A stretch of 64,000 nucleotides of DNA from Fervidobacterium thailandense (lineage in GTDB: Bacteria; Thermotogota; Thermotogae; Thermotogales; Fervidobacteriaceae): the NCBI RefSeq assembly GCF_001719065.1, contig NZ_LWAF01000002.1, forward strand, positions 62,001 through 126,000, read 5' to 3'. The notes under the pieces were generated by a model that did no database searches, was not told the origin of the DNA, and was given only the letters and a program-made list of their open reading frames with translations. Position numbers and translations under genes: made by a program. Below, in pieces: positions 15,669 to 40,980 of the stretch (position 1 is its first letter; each line of letters begins with the position of its first letter).

Positions 15669-15776
15669 CGCTGGTACGGTGTAGTATACCAGAACACGAG
15701 TGAGCTCGTGAGAGATTTTCACTGTTTTTGACTTCTTTGCCACAAAAATTTGACGAGGCTGAAAATGAGTGTCAAA

Positions 15777-15805
15777 CTGACAAAGCACAGTTTACTGGTT
15801 ATAAT
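15777..15805 (+). promoter_or_regulatory. Promoter of glyA
   Basis: CTGACA (15777-15782) and a perfect TATAAT (15800-15805) are separated by 17 bp. The predicted transcript start near 15812 lies 43 nt before the chosen glyA ATG and downstream of an earlier in-frame start. Confidence 0.75.
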
Positions 15806-15854
15806 TGATGCGGAGGACTGCAACGTCAATGTTCTTTGGAAGGAGGCTACAAGT

Positions 15855-17129
15855 ATGTGGGAGCACGTGAAGGTTGTCGATCCGGAAATATACGAGGTTC
15901 TAATCAAGGAATGGGAGCGGCAGGAGTACGGTCTTGAGCTGATCGCCTCGGAAAATTTTGTTTCCCTCGCGGTTATGGAGGCGATGGGGAGTGTTTTGAC
16001 TAACAAGTACGCGGAGGGATATCCGAAGAAACGTTACTACGGTGGTTGCGAGTGGGTCGATGTTGCCGAAACACTCGCACGTGAACGCGCCAAACAGCTT
16101 TTCAACGCAAAGTACGCAAACGTGCAACCGCACTCAGGTTCGCAAGCGAACATGGGAACGTATTTCGCACTCGCCGAACCGGGTTCGGTCCTGATGGGCA
16201 TGTCGCTCAGTCACGGAGGACACTTGACGCACGGTGCACCGGTCAACTTCTCGGGACAGATTTACAAGGTTGTGCAGTACGGTGTGAACCTTGAAACGGA
16301 ATTAATAGACTACGATGAGGTAAGAAGATTGGCGCACGAGCACAAACCGAAGATAATCGTTGCGGGTGGAAGCGCGTACTCCAGAATCATCGATTTCAAA
16401 AAGTTCAGGGAGATCGCCGACGAAGTCGGTGCTTATCTGGTTGTTGACATGGCGCACTTTGCCGGACTTGTGGCAGCCGGGTTGTACCCAAATCCTCTTG
16501 AGTACGCACACGTTGTAACCAGCACGACACACAAGACATTGAGAGGACCGCGTGGAGGTTTGATACTCACTAACGATGAAGAGCTTTACAAAGCGATAAA
16601 CAAAGCGATATTCCCCGGCATACAGGGTGGACCACTCATGCACGTCATCGCGGCGAAGGCTGTCTGTTTCAAAGAGGCCCTCAGCGAGGACTTCAGAAAG
16701 TACCAAGAACAAGTTGTCAAAAACGCAAAAGCGCTCGCAAGGGCACTCGAGGATAGGGGATTGCGGATCGTTTCCGGTGGGACGGACACGCACCTGATGC
16801 TTGTTGACCTGACACCGCTGAACGTGACCGGAAAGGCCGCGGAAACGGCACTCGGGTACTGTCACATCACTGTGAACAAGAACACGATACCGAACGAGAA
16901 ACGCTCGCCGTTCGTTGCCAGTGGTATAAGGCTCGGAACTCCCGCGTTAACCACACGTGGGATGAAGGAAGAACAGATGGAAGAAATCGCGGAGCTTATA
17001 GTCATGGTCTTGAAACACATAAAGGACGAGGAAGGAAACGTTGATGAAGCCATAGCAAAAGAAGTTAGTGATAAAGTGATAAAACTCTGCAAAGAGTTCC
17101 CGCTTTACGAGGGTAAGATCAAACTATAA
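15855..17129 (+). CDS. glyA: Serine hydroxymethyltransferase
   Basis: This 424-residue PLP enzyme interconverts serine and glycine with tetrahydrofolate and supplies one-carbon units. Seen are [10 protein letters not shown] near the N-terminus, [18 protein letters not shown], the [10 protein letters not shown] block, [12 protein letters not shown], and the PLP-lysine motif [14 protein letters not shown]. The length is standard. The ATG at 15855 has GGAGG 9 nt upstream and follows a strong promoter at 15777-15805. The longer open frame would start upstream of that promoter. A DUF1015 gene follows after 24 nt and is probably co-transcribed. Confidence 0.95.
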
Positions 17130-21071: not shown

Positions 21072-21782
21072 ATGAGCCGAATTGTTTGTCAAAACATCTC
21101 GAAGAGATTCGGTCGAAAGCTCGTGTTAAACGATGTTTCCATCGAGGCTAATACCGGAGAAGTAGTGGGATTGCTCGGACCGAACGGTTCGGGCAAGACC
21201 ACTTTATTCAACATCATCCTTGGGGTTGTCGTGCCAAACAAGGGAAAGATATTTTTTGACGACATTAACATCACCAACCTTCCGATACACAAACGCGCAA
21301 GGTTGGGGATAACTTATCTACAACAGGAAACGTCCGTCTTCCGTGAACTGACCGTTGAGGACAACATTAAGGCGATTATAGAATACCAGAAAATGAGTAA
21401 GGCCGAGAGAAGAGAGTTAATCGATTTCACCTTGGAGGAGTTCGGTATACTCGATCTGAAGAAACAGTATGCTTATTCTCTCTCCGGTGGTGAAAAGCGA
21501 AGGCTCGAGCTTGCACGGATGATGGTACTCCGGCCAAAGTTTGTTTTACTCGACGAGCCGTTCATAGGTATTGACCCGAAGACGGTAAAGGAAATACAGC
21601 GTATAGTAGTCGATCTCAAGCAACGTGGGATAGGCGTGATTATCACCGACCACTCAGTTGATGCACTCAGACCGATCGTCGATAGGCTGTACGTGATACA
21701 TAAGGGCCAGGTCCTTGCTTCGGGAGCACCCGAGGAGGTCTTTGAGAACGAGATCGTCAAAAGTGTATACTTGGGAGAGTAA
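21072..21782 (+). CDS. lptB: LptB-type ABC transporter ATPase
   Basis: This 236-residue ATPase has Walker A GPNGSGKTT (about residues 36-44), a YLQQE Q-loop, the signature LSGGEKRRLELAR, Walker B FVLLDEP and the switch His in ITDHSVD. The GIGVIITDHSVDALRPIVDRLYV region and the overall spacing resemble LptB, which powers lipopolysaccharide export with LptFG. Thermotogota have an unusual outer sheath and are not known for classical LPS, so the cargo may be another envelope lipid (inference). The neighbouring Skp-like gene supports an envelope role. The membrane partners are not in the window. Confidence 0.82.
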   Translation: MSRIVCQNISKRFGRKLVLNDVSIEANTGEVVGLLGPNGSGKTTLFNIILGVVVPNKGKIFFDDINITNLPIHKRARLGITYLQQETSVFRELTVEDNIKAIIEYQKMSKAERRELIDFTLEEFGILDLKKQYAYSLSGGEKRRLELARMMVLRPKFVLLDEPFIGIDPKTVKEIQRIVVDLKQRGIGVIITDHSVDALRPIVDRLYVIHKGQVLASGAPEEVFENEIVKSVYLGE

Positions 21783-37259: not shown

Positions 37260-40200
37260 CTATTTTACCCTAAAGATCCAAATATCGCTTCCACCAAGGT
37301 TCCTCTTCACATCGAAGTTCTTGGAGAATGAAACACCAACGACAACTATCGAACCATCTTCGTCAACGAGAACATCGTACGCATAATCAGCCAACGCGCC
37401 ACCGTAAGTCTTAGCCCATCTGAGGTTCCCGTCTTTATCGATGTCAATTATAAGTACATCCACAGCTCCCTTCAGGCCTTCGAATTCCCTTGAAAGCGTG
37501 TAACCCACTATTACAAATCCACCATCCGGGAATTCCGCAACCGAGTATCCGACATCTTCTTCCTTACCACCTATCGTCCTTTGCCAAATGATTTCACCAG
37601 CTGCGTTGACTTTTACAGCCCAGATATCCCAGAAGCCGTTGTTCCTCTGGACATCTCCGTCGGTACTCGTCGTATAGCCCAAGATGAGGAAGTTACCATC
37701 CGAGGTCTTGATTATCCTCGTTGCCTCGTCCTGTTCGGTTCCACCGTAAGCCTTGTTGAGCATCAAAACTTTGCCGAGATCTTTACTGATCTTGAGCATC
37801 CAAATATCCGAAGAACCGTGGTTGTAAGGTACGTCGCCTTCAAGAGAGTACGTTGCCCCAACAATGATGAAGCCGTCCTCCACTTCGACAACATCCACCG
37901 CTTTGTCCCTGTCCAAACCTCCGTACACGGCTGAAGCCAAGAGCTTTCCATCGTATGAGAGTTTGGATACCCAGACATCCCAAGTACCTATGTTACGACC
38001 CACATCGCCGTTTACAGAGTTACTTGTACCAACTACGAGCAATTCTCCACCCTTGGTGTAAATCACCCTGTAAGGAATATCGTGACCGGTACCACCGTAC
38101 AACGTTGTCCAGAGCTGTTTACCGTCCTTGGCCAACTTAAAGGCTACCGCATCCCAACCACCTTTGCCGTCTTGTCCGTCGACCTTTGGAGACTGCGTGT
38201 AACCCAAGACAACGTACCCATCTGGAACCTCAACAACGTCCATTCCTTCATCCCATCCACTTCCACCGAGGAGTCTCATCCATTCGAGTTTGAAAGACTT
38301 ATCAAGCTTAAGTACGATGATGTCCGATTCACCCATGAACCCGGGCAGTTCGGAAGATTGTGTGCTACCAACGACGATGTACCCTCCATCGGTGGTCTTA
38401 ACCACACGCTTGACCGTATCCGCCATCTTCCCACCGTAGACTTCCGAATCGACGATGGTGGGTAATTTGACCCTGAAGGTGAAGATGTCACTCTCCACTT
38501 CACCGAACTTGTTCCTGGCGGTGACTTTCCATTTGTATTCGGTACCAAAGTGCAGGCGCGGTAAGGCGTATTCGGTGTCCCTCAAAGTATCAACGAACTC
38601 AGGTTCGGTCCTTCCAAAGTAGAGGTCGAATTCCTCGGCCCTTTCGGAACGCCATTTCAGTACCACGTCGGCTGGAACTTCCGTGTCTCCGTCTTTCGGA
38701 TAAATTGCCACCGGTTTTTCCGGGAGCATACCGGTTGTAAACGACCACACCGGACCTTCAGCTTCGCCAAACCTGTTCTTGGCCACGACTTTCCAGTAGT
38801 ACTTTACACCGAAGAGTAAATCGTACATTTCAACCGCACTTTCTTTTAAGTCCTCGTAGACCAACTCGAGCTTGTCGGGTACGAATCCCATGTACAAATC
38901 GTAACTTTCCGCCTTCGAACTTTCCCATCTCAGGACCAGGTTCGTGAACTGATCGGTTGCACCATCAGGTGGTTCCGGATTGAACGGTACAGTCGGTACA
39001 TTACCAACGGTGAACTTTACAACCGGTGATGGCGTCTCTCCAAACTTGTTCTTACCGACAACCTGCCAGTAGTAGGTCTTACCAAGCTCGAGATTTTCGA
39101 CGACGAGTTCGGAATCCGTAATATCGGTAGCTATCGGCTCGAGTTCGTCAACGGACGGTCCCATGTAGACATCGTACGCATCAGCGTATTCAAATCTCCA
39201 AGCCAAGGTTTGGCTCTTCCAAACATCTTCTTCTCCATCAAGTGGGCTGATGATTTCGATGAACTCCGGTTTCGTTCCCGTCTTAAACATTTCAACATCA
39301 CTTTCGCTATGACCGAAGTCGTTCTTGGCTACAACTTTCCAGAAGTAAGTTGTGCCAAGCTCGAGGTCAAATGGCAACGTGATTTCCAATTCCGTCGTTG
39401 TTGCGGCAAGTTCCATCTCATCAAAACTCGTCCCAAGGTAAAGCTCGAATTCGCTGGCGTCTTTCGATTTCCACTTGAACGCTGGCTGGATCCAAACTTT
39501 TTCACCCTTCGGTTCAATCAACACCGGCTTACTCGGAACATCACCGGTGGTGAACTTCCACACAGGTCCCTCCGTTTCACCGAACGCATTCTTTGCTACA
39601 ACTTTCCAGTAGTACGTTGTACCCAACTCAAGTTTCGGTGCTTCAAATGACGGTTCCAAAACGGTTCCAAGGTAATTCAAGTTCTCTGGAGAAGTCCCCA
39701 TGTACACGTCGAATTCCGCGGCCCTTTCCGAGCTCCAAAGTAGTATCGGTTCAACCCATACCCTCTCAGCGCCGTCGTATGGCACGGGATCCGAAGGTTG
39801 GGTGGGGGTGAATCCGGTTCGGAACGTCAGAATCGGACTTTCGGTCTCACCAAATGCGTTCCGGGCCACGATCTTCCAGTTGTAGACAGTTCCAGGTTTG
39901 AGCCCTTCGAGAGTGTACTCTTTCTCAAAATGGTTCTTCTGGATTAGATCAAGGTTACCTTCTTCACCAAAGTAAATGTCAAAACTTTTCGCACGCAACG
40001 AATCCCACTTCAAACTGACTTTTGTGGGTACGTCAACCGCACCGTCCTCTGGTTCAAAGTTCGTCAGCTCTCCTGGTACGAATTCCGAATTCTGGAAATC
40101 CAACAATGCGTTGATGAGTATCGCACCGGTTCCAACGAGAATGTTGAGAGGTACTTGAGCGAGAGATATCCTATCCCGTACTACCTCAACGTTATCCCGT

Positions 40201-40655
40201 CGACCGTAAGCTACTATGCGTTCTTCCTTGTTATCGATCTTACCGAACACCTTAACGATCACGTTGTAACGACCGGACTTTAACTTTGTAATCAACCCGG
40301 TGGCTTCTCCAGTCTCCCTGTTGTAGTTCAACTCGAACGGACCTTCCACAAACTGTTGGTTGAAGATTTCCACGGTCGCCCTCGTGATCCATATTCCCAT
40401 CTCGAGCAACGACCTGTCAAGCTCTGAGAGCCGCAGTGAGTACTCCTCGTACTCACCGGGAGGCAAAACCGGCTCTACTATCGGAGCGTACTTTTTCAAA
40501 ATATCCTGTAAAGCTTCGGCCAGATTCACTGTCGGATCTTCCAAAAGGGCCTTGAGTTCGTAGTAGAGCTTGGTCAAAGGCGTTGTCATTTGAACCTGAG
40601 CGGTCAGTATACCGAAGAAAAGTAACAAAATGGCCAAAAGAGCAAACCGCTTCAT
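37260..40655 (-). CDS. Exported protein with six FN3-like repeats and a seven-repeat beta-propeller
   Basis: I do not recognise a named family for the whole 1131-residue protein. A signal peptide (KRFALLAILLLFFGILTAQ) is followed by a helical region of about 190 residues. Then come six FN3-like repeats of about 90 residues each (recurring LGTTYYWKVVAKNAFGE and PxDG starts), and about 370 residues of seven repeats built on YGG-x-x-x-D-x-(A)-x-x-V-x-x-x-x-DG-G-(Y/F)-(I/V)-V-G-(Y/S)-T ending in D-(I/V)-W-x-x-K. Seven such repeats suit a seven-bladed propeller. No membrane anchor or catalytic motif is seen, so it is likely periplasmic or toga-associated. ATG 40655 has AAGGGGGG upstream. Confidence 0.75.
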   Translation of the reverse strand: MKRFALLAILLLFFGILTAQVQMTTPLTKLYYELKALLEDPTVNLAEALQDILKKYAPIVEPVLPPGEYEEYSLRLSELDRSLLEMGIWITRATVEIFNQQFVEGPFELNYNRETGEATGLITKLKSGRYNVIVKVFGKIDNKEERIVAYGRRDNVEVVRDRISLAQVPLNILVGTGAILINALLDFQNSEFVPGELTNFEPEDGAVDVPTKVSLKWDSLRAKSFDIYFGEEGNLDLIQKNHFEKEYTLEGLKPGTVYNWKIVARNAFGETESPILTFRTGFTPTQPSDPVPYDGAERVWVEPILLWSSERAAEFDVYMGTSPENLNYLGTVLEPSFEAPKLELGTTYYWKVVAKNAFGETEGPVWKFTTGDVPSKPVLIEPKGEKVWIQPAFKWKSKDASEFELYLGTSFDEMELAATTTELEITLPFDLELGTTYFWKVVAKNDFGHSESDVEMFKTGTKPEFIEIISPLDGEEDVWKSQTLAWRFEYADAYDVYMGPSVDELEPIATDITDSELVVENLELGKTYYWQVVGKNKFGETPSPVVKFTVGNVPTVPFNPEPPDGATDQFTNLVLRWESSKAESYDLYMGFVPDKLELVYEDLKESAVEMYDLLFGVKYYWKVVAKNRFGEAEGPVWSFTTGMLPEKPVAIYPKDGDTEVPADVVLKWRSERAEEFDLYFGRTEPEFVDTLRDTEYALPRLHFGTEYKWKVTARNKFGEVESDIFTFRVKLPTIVDSEVYGGKMADTVKRVVKTTDGGYIVVGSTQSSELPGFMGESDIIVLKLDKSFKLEWMRLLGGSGWDEGMDVVEVPDGYVVLGYTQSPKVDGQDGKGGWDAVAFKLAKDGKQLWTTLYGGTGHDIPYRVIYTKGGELLVVGTSNSVNGDVGRNIGTWDVWVSKLSYDGKLLASAVYGGLDRDKAVDVVEVEDGFIIVGATYSLEGDVPYNHGSSDIWMLKISKDLGKVLMLNKAYGGTEQDEATRIIKTSDGNFLILGYTTSTDGDVQRNNGFWDIWAVKVNAAGEIIWQRTIGGKEEDVGYSVAEFPDGGFVIVGYTLSREFEGLKGAVDVLIIDIDKDGNLRWAKTYGGALADYAYDVLVDEDGSIVVVGVSFSKNFDVKRNLGGSDIWIFRVK

Positions 40656-40749: not shown

Positions 40750-40780
40750 ATTATAACACCAAAGATTATAATTTTTGCAA
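40750..40780 (-). promoter_or_regulatory. Possible promoter of the FN3-propeller gene
   Basis: On the minus strand TTGCAA (40780-40775) and TATAAT (40755-40750) are separated by 19 bp, longer than ideal. A second TATAAT (40770-40765) overlaps the spacer. Confidence 0.4.
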
Positions 40781-40966: not shown

Positions 40967-40980
40967 TGTAAATATTTACA
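40967..40980. promoter_or_regulatory. Candidate operator of the sugar-uptake operon
   Basis: TGTAAATATTTACA is a perfect 14-bp palindrome lying 5 nt upstream of a TATCAT -10-like box (40985-40990) and 65 nt before the binding-protein ATG. The position, between -35 and -10, suits a repressor. The LacI-family gene at 48950 encodes the obvious candidate, but LacI sites usually have a central CG, so this is uncertain. Confidence 0.45.

What the first reader, a model, noticed from the sequence alone, without database searches (positions are those of the whole stretch)
37260..40655. Large exported FN3 plus seven-blade propeller protein
Six FN3-like repeats lead into seven YGG...DGG...VGYT...DIW repeats, with a signal peptide and no anchor or catalytic motif. 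The order suggests a stalk with a binding head at the cell surface or toga. It is divergent from the polysaccharide-uptake operon with a shared control region, so it may help bind plant polymers. I know no described family of this architecture, though I cannot search.
Basis: partly seen in the sequence, partly recalled or inferred. Interest (0 to 1): 0.55.

Follow-up and report, generated by a model that had tools for sequence, protein, structure and literature searches.

The report
Stalked seven-blade propeller envelope protein
A heat-loving bacterium exports a long rod-shaped protein ending in a seven-bladed propeller, probably a binding head held at the cell envelope beside its mannan-uptake genes; its parts are of known kinds, though its front domain is new to the databases searched.

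Summary
Window 37260-40655 (-) encodes 1131 aa: signal peptide, a 176-aa N-terminal domain, six FN3 repeats and seven YGG repeats. The repeats fold as a propeller: the AlphaFold model of residues 731-1131 has pLDDT 86, pTM 0.89 and 28 strands, 7 x 4. Its nearest solved relative is the CylK propeller (sequence E 7.5e-19; Z 49 against 31.5 for the next entry).

'No described family' is too strong. The propeller is CylK-type and widespread, and FN3-plus-propeller proteins recur across Thermotogota on lipoprotein or membrane anchors. Special here: an N-terminal domain seen in 9 of 103 phylum genomes, always in this protein; a conserved hydrophobic segment that may be an anchor; three invariant tryptophans at the top-face position of CylK's catalytic Tyr473.

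The gene is divergent from the mannan-type ABC operon in 6 of 8 other full-length loci but has its own conserved promoter; the operator-like palindrome lies at the operon side. One genome keeps the gene without the transporter. Likely an envelope-displayed binding head; ligand unproven.

The parts
37260..40655 (-). Whole gene, 1131 aa, ATG at 40655
   Evidence: orthologues
40599..40655 (-). Signal peptide, residues 1-19, no lipobox Cys
   Evidence: read; same layout in 9 of 9 full-length sequences
40071..40598 (-). N-terminal domain, residues 20-195, found only in this orthologue group
   Evidence: 76% identity between the two genera, the most conserved part; no Pfam match at E 10; profile hits only this protein in 9 of 103 phylum genomes
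40104..40169 (-). Conserved hydrophobic segment, residues 163-184, candidate membrane anchor
   Evidence: hydropathy in 9 of 9 sequences; low-confidence helix 171-187 in the full-length model
38466..40070 (-). Six FN3 repeats, residues 196-730
37263..38465 (-). Seven-bladed CylK-type propeller, residues 731-1131
38154..38156 (-). W834, aligned with CylK catalytic Tyr473, invariant in 9 of 9 sequences
37980..37982 (-). W892, same position in blade 3, invariant in 9 of 9
37629..37631 (-). W1009, same position in blade 5, invariant in 9 of 9
40750..40780 (-). Promoter of the gene: TTGCAA and extended -10 TGnTATAAT
   Evidence: extended -10 upstream of 9 of 9 orthologues; the consensus scan found no promoter here (the spacer is 19, outside its 16-18)
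40967..40980 (.). Palindrome TGTAAATATTTACA at the operon side, LacI-like operator candidate
   Evidence: at most 1 mismatch in 8 of 9 loci; one exact site in the genome
41045..51066 (+). Divergent operon: family-5 binding protein, two permeases, two ATPases, GH130, GH1, LacI regulator, GH5
   Evidence: Pfam for the binding protein, both ATPases, GH130, GH1, LacI and GH5; permeases read from the ORFs, not scanned

Best explanation
It is an exported, envelope-held binding protein. Shown: a signal-peptide-like N-terminus, six FN3 repeats and a closed seven-bladed CylK-type propeller. Inferred: the group-specific N-terminal domain, with the hydrophobic stretch 163-184, holds the protein to the cell envelope, doing the job that a lipidated Cys or a membrane helix does in its Thermotogota cousins; the FN3 repeats are a spacer that carries the propeller away from that anchor point; and the propeller's top face, with invariant Trp834, Trp892 and Trp1009 (perhaps Trp801), binds a ligand, most plausibly a saccharide given the mannan-type uptake locus beside it. 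Acidic residues at the seven blade junctions probably bind Ca2+ as in CylK and stiffen the head for growth in heat. It is not a CylK-like alkylating enzyme.
For: Propeller fold: model pLDDT 86.1, pTM 0.89, exactly 28 strands; CylK rows at Z 48-49 over 377-387 residues, next entry Z 31.5. FN3 and blade counts by independent profiles. Anchored cousins: of the seven non-orthologous FN3-plus-propeller ORFs with a readable N-terminus, three show a lipobox (G039, G044, G023) and four an N-terminal hydrophobic segment without Cys (G003, G004, G005, G007), read by eye, so anchor-spacer-head is the common plan. Top-face Trp: invariant in 9 of 9 sequences, while W stands before the blade Asp in only 2 of 116 blades of 21 divergent ORFs; the CylK residue there, Tyr473, is at the top face by mutagenesis and crystal structure (PMC8916777, passages, section 5). 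Top-face loops d-a and b-c are 62% and 49% invariant against 52% and 31% for the bottom loops. Blade-junction Asp in 7 of 7 blades (alignment) and an acid in the 6 CylK junctions visible. Linkage to the uptake locus in 6 of 8 loci. The same kind of propeller follows a tail-like module in a viral contig, where receptor binding would be natural.
Against: No ligand and no location data. The propeller is less conserved between genera (62%) than the N-terminal domain (76%). G017 keeps the gene without a close binding-protein orthologue, and G015 has the two unlinked. The a-b bottom loops are as conserved as the b-c top loops. FN3-propeller cousins elsewhere in Thermotogota have other neighbours. 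The full-length model is poor (mean pLDDT 51.9, N-terminal domain mostly under 50), so the anchor and the relative domain positions are not modelled.
Confidence: 0.5

Rival explanations
1. A structural or scaffolding envelope protein: the propeller binds another envelope protein (toga, peptidoglycan-linked or assembly factor) and does not contact nutrients.
For: Propellers commonly serve protein-protein contacts in eukaryotes (PMC8916777 section 5); the N-terminal domain is the most conserved part; gene retained without the neighbouring transporter in G017; a BAM-complex propeller chain is a weak Foldseek row (E 9.5e-7).
Against: The gene stays beside a sugar-uptake locus in most loci; I saw no conserved linkage to envelope-assembly genes there.
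Confidence: 0.28
2. An exported enzyme using the propeller as catalytic head, in the manner of CylK or propeller lyases.
For: Nearest solved relative is an enzyme.
Against: CylK Tyr473 corresponds to W834 and D440 to E803 (alignment); the CylK domain that supplies Arg105 is absent, and the part before the propeller is FN3. No catalytic Pfam domain passes its cut-off over the propeller.
Confidence: 0.08
3. A mannan/glucomannan capture protein dedicated to the divergent ABC operon and co-regulated with it by the LacI-family regulator (a narrower form of the best explanation).
For: Divergent in 6 of 8 other loci; palindrome with at most 1 mismatch in 8 of 9 upstream regions; GH130, GH1, GH5 and LacI in the operon.
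Against: The gene has its own promoter in 9 of 9, about 210 nt from the palindrome; gene without transporter in G017, transporter without gene in G011.
Confidence: 0.15

Closest known systems
CylK (PDB 7RON, 7ROO, 7FH6-7FH8), C-terminal seven-bladed propeller
   Same: Sequence E 7.5e-19 for the propeller, Z 49; long b-c loops; acid at blade junctions
   Different: CylK has a Ca2+-binding roll domain before the propeller and catalytic Arg105/Tyr473; here FN3 repeats stand there and Tyr473 is Trp
SBBP-repeat beta-propeller lipoprotein, LipL53 family (NCBIfam NF047494)
   Same: Weak match E 3.9e-9, 35.7 bits; a propeller lipoprotein by its name
   Different: Far under the curated cut-off of 400 bits; no lipobox here; has an FN3 stalk
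FN3-plus-propeller lipoproteins and membrane-anchored proteins of other Thermotogota (e.g. G039, G044, G023, G004, G005)
   Same: FN3 repeats followed by a propeller of the same repeat type, 27-37% identity overall
   Different: Lipobox or N-terminal membrane segment instead of the N-terminal domain; different gene neighbourhood
Omp-alpha (OmpA1) toga anchor of Thermotoga
   Same: Spacer protein of the same kind of envelope with a hydrophobic stretch that may sit in the toga (PMC3387000, passages)
   Different: Coiled coil and SLH domain, no FN3 or propeller; a works-like comparison only

Membership tests
CylK-type seven-bladed propeller domain | Seven four-stranded blades with closest similarity to the CylK propeller | tested here: met
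CylK-type seven-bladed propeller domain | Ca2+ ions bridging the blades | not testable with these tools
   Asp at the junction in 7 of 7 blades (alignment); no metal can be shown
CylK alkylating enzymes | Catalytic Tyr473 | tested here: not met
   aligned residue is W834
CylK alkylating enzymes | N-terminal Ca2+-binding roll domain with Arg105 | tested here: not met
   FN3 repeats precede the propeller; CylK matched only in its propeller part
LipL53 family (NF047494) | Score above the curated cut-off | tested here: not met
   35.7 bits against 400
FN3 repeat proteins (PF00041) | Score above the gathering cut-off | tested here: met
   66 bits against 25
Bacterial lipoprotein | Lipobox Cys at the signal peptide end | tested here: not met
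   no Cys in the whole window protein; none at the site in the 9 sequences
S-layer or toga anchor with SLH domain | SLH domain | tested here: not met
   no SLH family among the Pfam hits at E 1

The most novel reading that the evidence does not exclude
A toga-crossing receptor: the N-terminal domain sits under the outer sheath, the conserved hydrophobic segment 163-184 passes through it, and the FN3 stalk presents outside a propeller whose three top-face tryptophans grip mannan or glucomannan for the adjacent uptake locus, a surface glycan receptor of a kind I found no description of for Thermotogota.
Probability: 0.12. Interest if true: 0.6.

Novelty: new variant of a known kind. Interest (0 to 1): 0.33.

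Why it matters
The toga is the defining envelope of Thermotogales; a 2012 paper names only two purified and characterised toga structural proteins in T. maritima (PMC3387000 abstract). A stalked head with a group-specific front domain is a concrete candidate for how these cells touch their surroundings, with three residues named for testing. It also places the CylK propeller, known as part of an enzyme, in a wide set of exported proteins and next to a viral tail module.

Tried and rejected
The only hit of the N-terminal domain outside the orthologues (G029, E 3.5e-4) lies in what looks by eye like an HD-domain protein and vanished with the profile; rejected as chance. PDB hits of the N-terminal profile start at E 0.68, noise. 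The full-length model was too weak for placing domains; its PDB search gave CylK first, then FN3 and propeller receptors such as ROS1 and Sevenless at very low TM-scores, taken as composite matches.

Literature: searches of the held library for Fervidobacterium/fibronectin type III/propeller, Thermotoga/toga/surface protein/propeller, SBBP/propeller, Fervidobacterium/toga/proteome and seven-bladed/propeller/lectin/FN3 listed nothing that I could tie to this protein; I saw listings only, apart from the papers named below, and most subscription papers are not held. In PMC12042847, PMC3387000 and PMC13157175 'fibronectin' and 'propeller' do not occur in the main text (passages only). PMC3750489 (passages) gives ManR as ROK family and CelR as LacI family in T. 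maritima, so the LacI regulator here cannot be named. The genome-collection scan returned one locus only, the same locus as L037, so the second genus has no name from any call; I suppose it is Fervidobacterium (recall).

Full report
What is there. The minus strand 37260-40655 encodes 1131 aa. Residues 1-19 look like a signal peptide without lipobox. Residues 20-195 form a separate domain. Six FN3 repeats follow (F-strand motifs at 258, 348, 437, 528, 619 and 707) and seven YGG-type repeats (740, 796, 853, 911, 970, 1028, 1084). Profiles built from seven orthologues of the other genus find all six and all seven in the window protein at 102-117 and 59-84 bits, against at most 4.8 and 6.4 bits in 500 shuffled proteins. 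The protein has no Cys.

The head. The last repeat ends after its third strand, and the strand before the first YGG supplies the missing one, the usual closure of a propeller (read). The full-length model from two sequences was poor (mean pLDDT 51.9), yet already showed 28 strands from residue 734. The propeller alone, with one orthologue and three viral relatives, gave pLDDT 86.1, pTM 0.89 and exactly 28 strands. CylK is the first match by sequence (E 7.5e-19), by Foldseek (E 2.7e-23) and by VIA-align (Z 49.2, rmsd 2.3, 387 aligned; next entry Z 31.5). So it is specifically CylK-like, not just any propeller. CylK has a Ca2+ site at each blade junction and its active site at the top face (PMC8916777: passages, section 5). 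In the window protein the junction motif GGxxxD has its Asp in 7 of 7 blades (alignment). The CylK catalytic Tyr473 is W834 here and D440 is E803 (alignment), and the domain that carries Arg105 is absent, so membership among CylK enzymes fails. W834, W892 and W1009, all directly before the blade Asp, are invariant in 9 of 9 sequences; at that column 2 of 116 blades from 21 divergent ORFs have W, 15 have Y and 5 have F. Top loops (d-a, b-c) are 62% and 49% invariant, bottom loops (a-b, c-d) 52% and 31%: a moderate tilt to the top face.

The front. The N-terminal domain is the best-kept part, 76% between the two genera against 60-74% for single FN3 repeats and 62% for the propeller. It has no Pfam match at E 10, no PDB match better than E 0.68, and its profile hits 9 of 103 genomes of the phylum, each time in this protein. 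It ends in a stretch, residues 163-184, with best 19-residue hydropathy of 1.65-1.83 in 9 of 9. Whether this is a membrane anchor or a buried helix I cannot tell; a toga anchor of about 20 hydrophobic residues has been proposed for Omp-alpha (PMC3387000, passages).

Family. Of 61 genomes searched (own included), full-length orthologues are in 9 (own, G001, G002, G006, G009, G012, G015, G016, G017) and one cut by a contig end is in G018; G019, 60% complete, has none. Among the ORFs of the 57 loci held and examined, ten non-orthologous ORFs (duplicate loci dropped; three of the ten cut by a contig end) join FN3 repeats to four or more blades: G003, G004, G005, G007 (two), G010, G023, G039 and G044 (two). 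The seven with a readable start carry a lipobox (G023, G039, one of G044) or an N-terminal hydrophobic segment (G003, G004, G005, one of G007), read by eye. I examined only loci that the searches returned, so this is a lower bound. In plasmid records 28 of 72,556 hold a relative of the propeller, in Halorussus, Hymenobacter, Methanomethylovorans, Deinococcus and others, some annotated SBBP-repeat, T9SS or PGF-CTERM protein.

Surroundings. To the right, divergent, stands an operon: family-5 binding protein, two permeases, two ATPases, GH130, GH1, LacI regulator, GH5. In 8 other full-length loci (L057, the same locus as L037, dropped) the binding-protein gene is the divergent neighbour in 6; the left neighbour, a Y-family polymerase gene, is kept in 2 of 7 readable loci. 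G015 has the gene beside the second ABC system, with the first binding protein on another contig; G017 has the GH genes nearby but no close binding protein (best 34%); G011 has the binding protein (78%) and lacks this orthologue. Around seven of the FN3-propeller cousins the neighbours differ: in three an ORF 73-74% identical to the window's 15750-17126 ORF, in four an ORF with a 27-32% match to the window's 21072-21779 ORF, neither scanned for families. So linkage is real but not strict, and it spans only two genera.

Control. An extended -10 (TGnTATAAT) stands upstream of 9 of 9 orthologues, G015 and G017 included, preceded by a TTGCA element. The palindrome TGTAAATATTTACA, with at most 1 mismatch in 8 of 9 loci and missing in G015 where the operon is not next door, lies about 210 nt further upstream in the window, about 65 nt before the binding-protein ATG. 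It occurs once exactly in the genome, plus one 1-mismatch site; in the window, 24 of 100 shuffles hold a match at the 2-mismatch limit. It reads as the operon's operator. G017 retains it although the transporter is gone, which may be a relic or may mean that it serves this gene.

Verdict. The claim of an unknown family shrinks to a new combination: a known propeller type on a known spacer with a group-specific front domain. Function as an envelope-displayed binding head is inferred; mannan as ligand is a guess with some genomic support.

Noticed in passing
L081:52-4347 (also L083): A viral contig encodes a 453-aa protein with seven YGG repeats and a C-terminal TVTDTNC-type repeat right after a tape-measure-like ORF and a tail-like ORF (named by eye): a propeller in the place of a tail receptor binder.
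   Followed up: partly
L080:2869-4245: A 458-aa protein of nearly identical YGG blades on an IMG/VR contig; recent blade amplification is likely.
   Followed up: no
L039:4788-6704 (G017): Between the GH genes and the orthologue the transporter genes are gone and a 385-aa ORF stands in their place, yet the operator-like palindrome remains.
   Followed up: partly
L005:1099-2439 (G000:C1): The window's genome has a second propeller-like protein, 446 aa with an N-terminal hydrophobic segment and at least three recognisable blades, next to a dnaJ-like ORF.
   Followed up: no
G001:C105:9190-9682: The GH130 gene matches in two pieces with one TGA inside in the sister genome, a possible broken gene or assembly error.
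   Followed up: no
L046:2781-7150, L050:4515-9515, L054:5015-8947: In three loci of two other genera an FN3-propeller lipoprotein gene neighbours an ORF 73-74% identical to the window's 15750-17126 ORF and then a 209-215-aa ORF, a different conserved neighbourhood.
   Followed up: no
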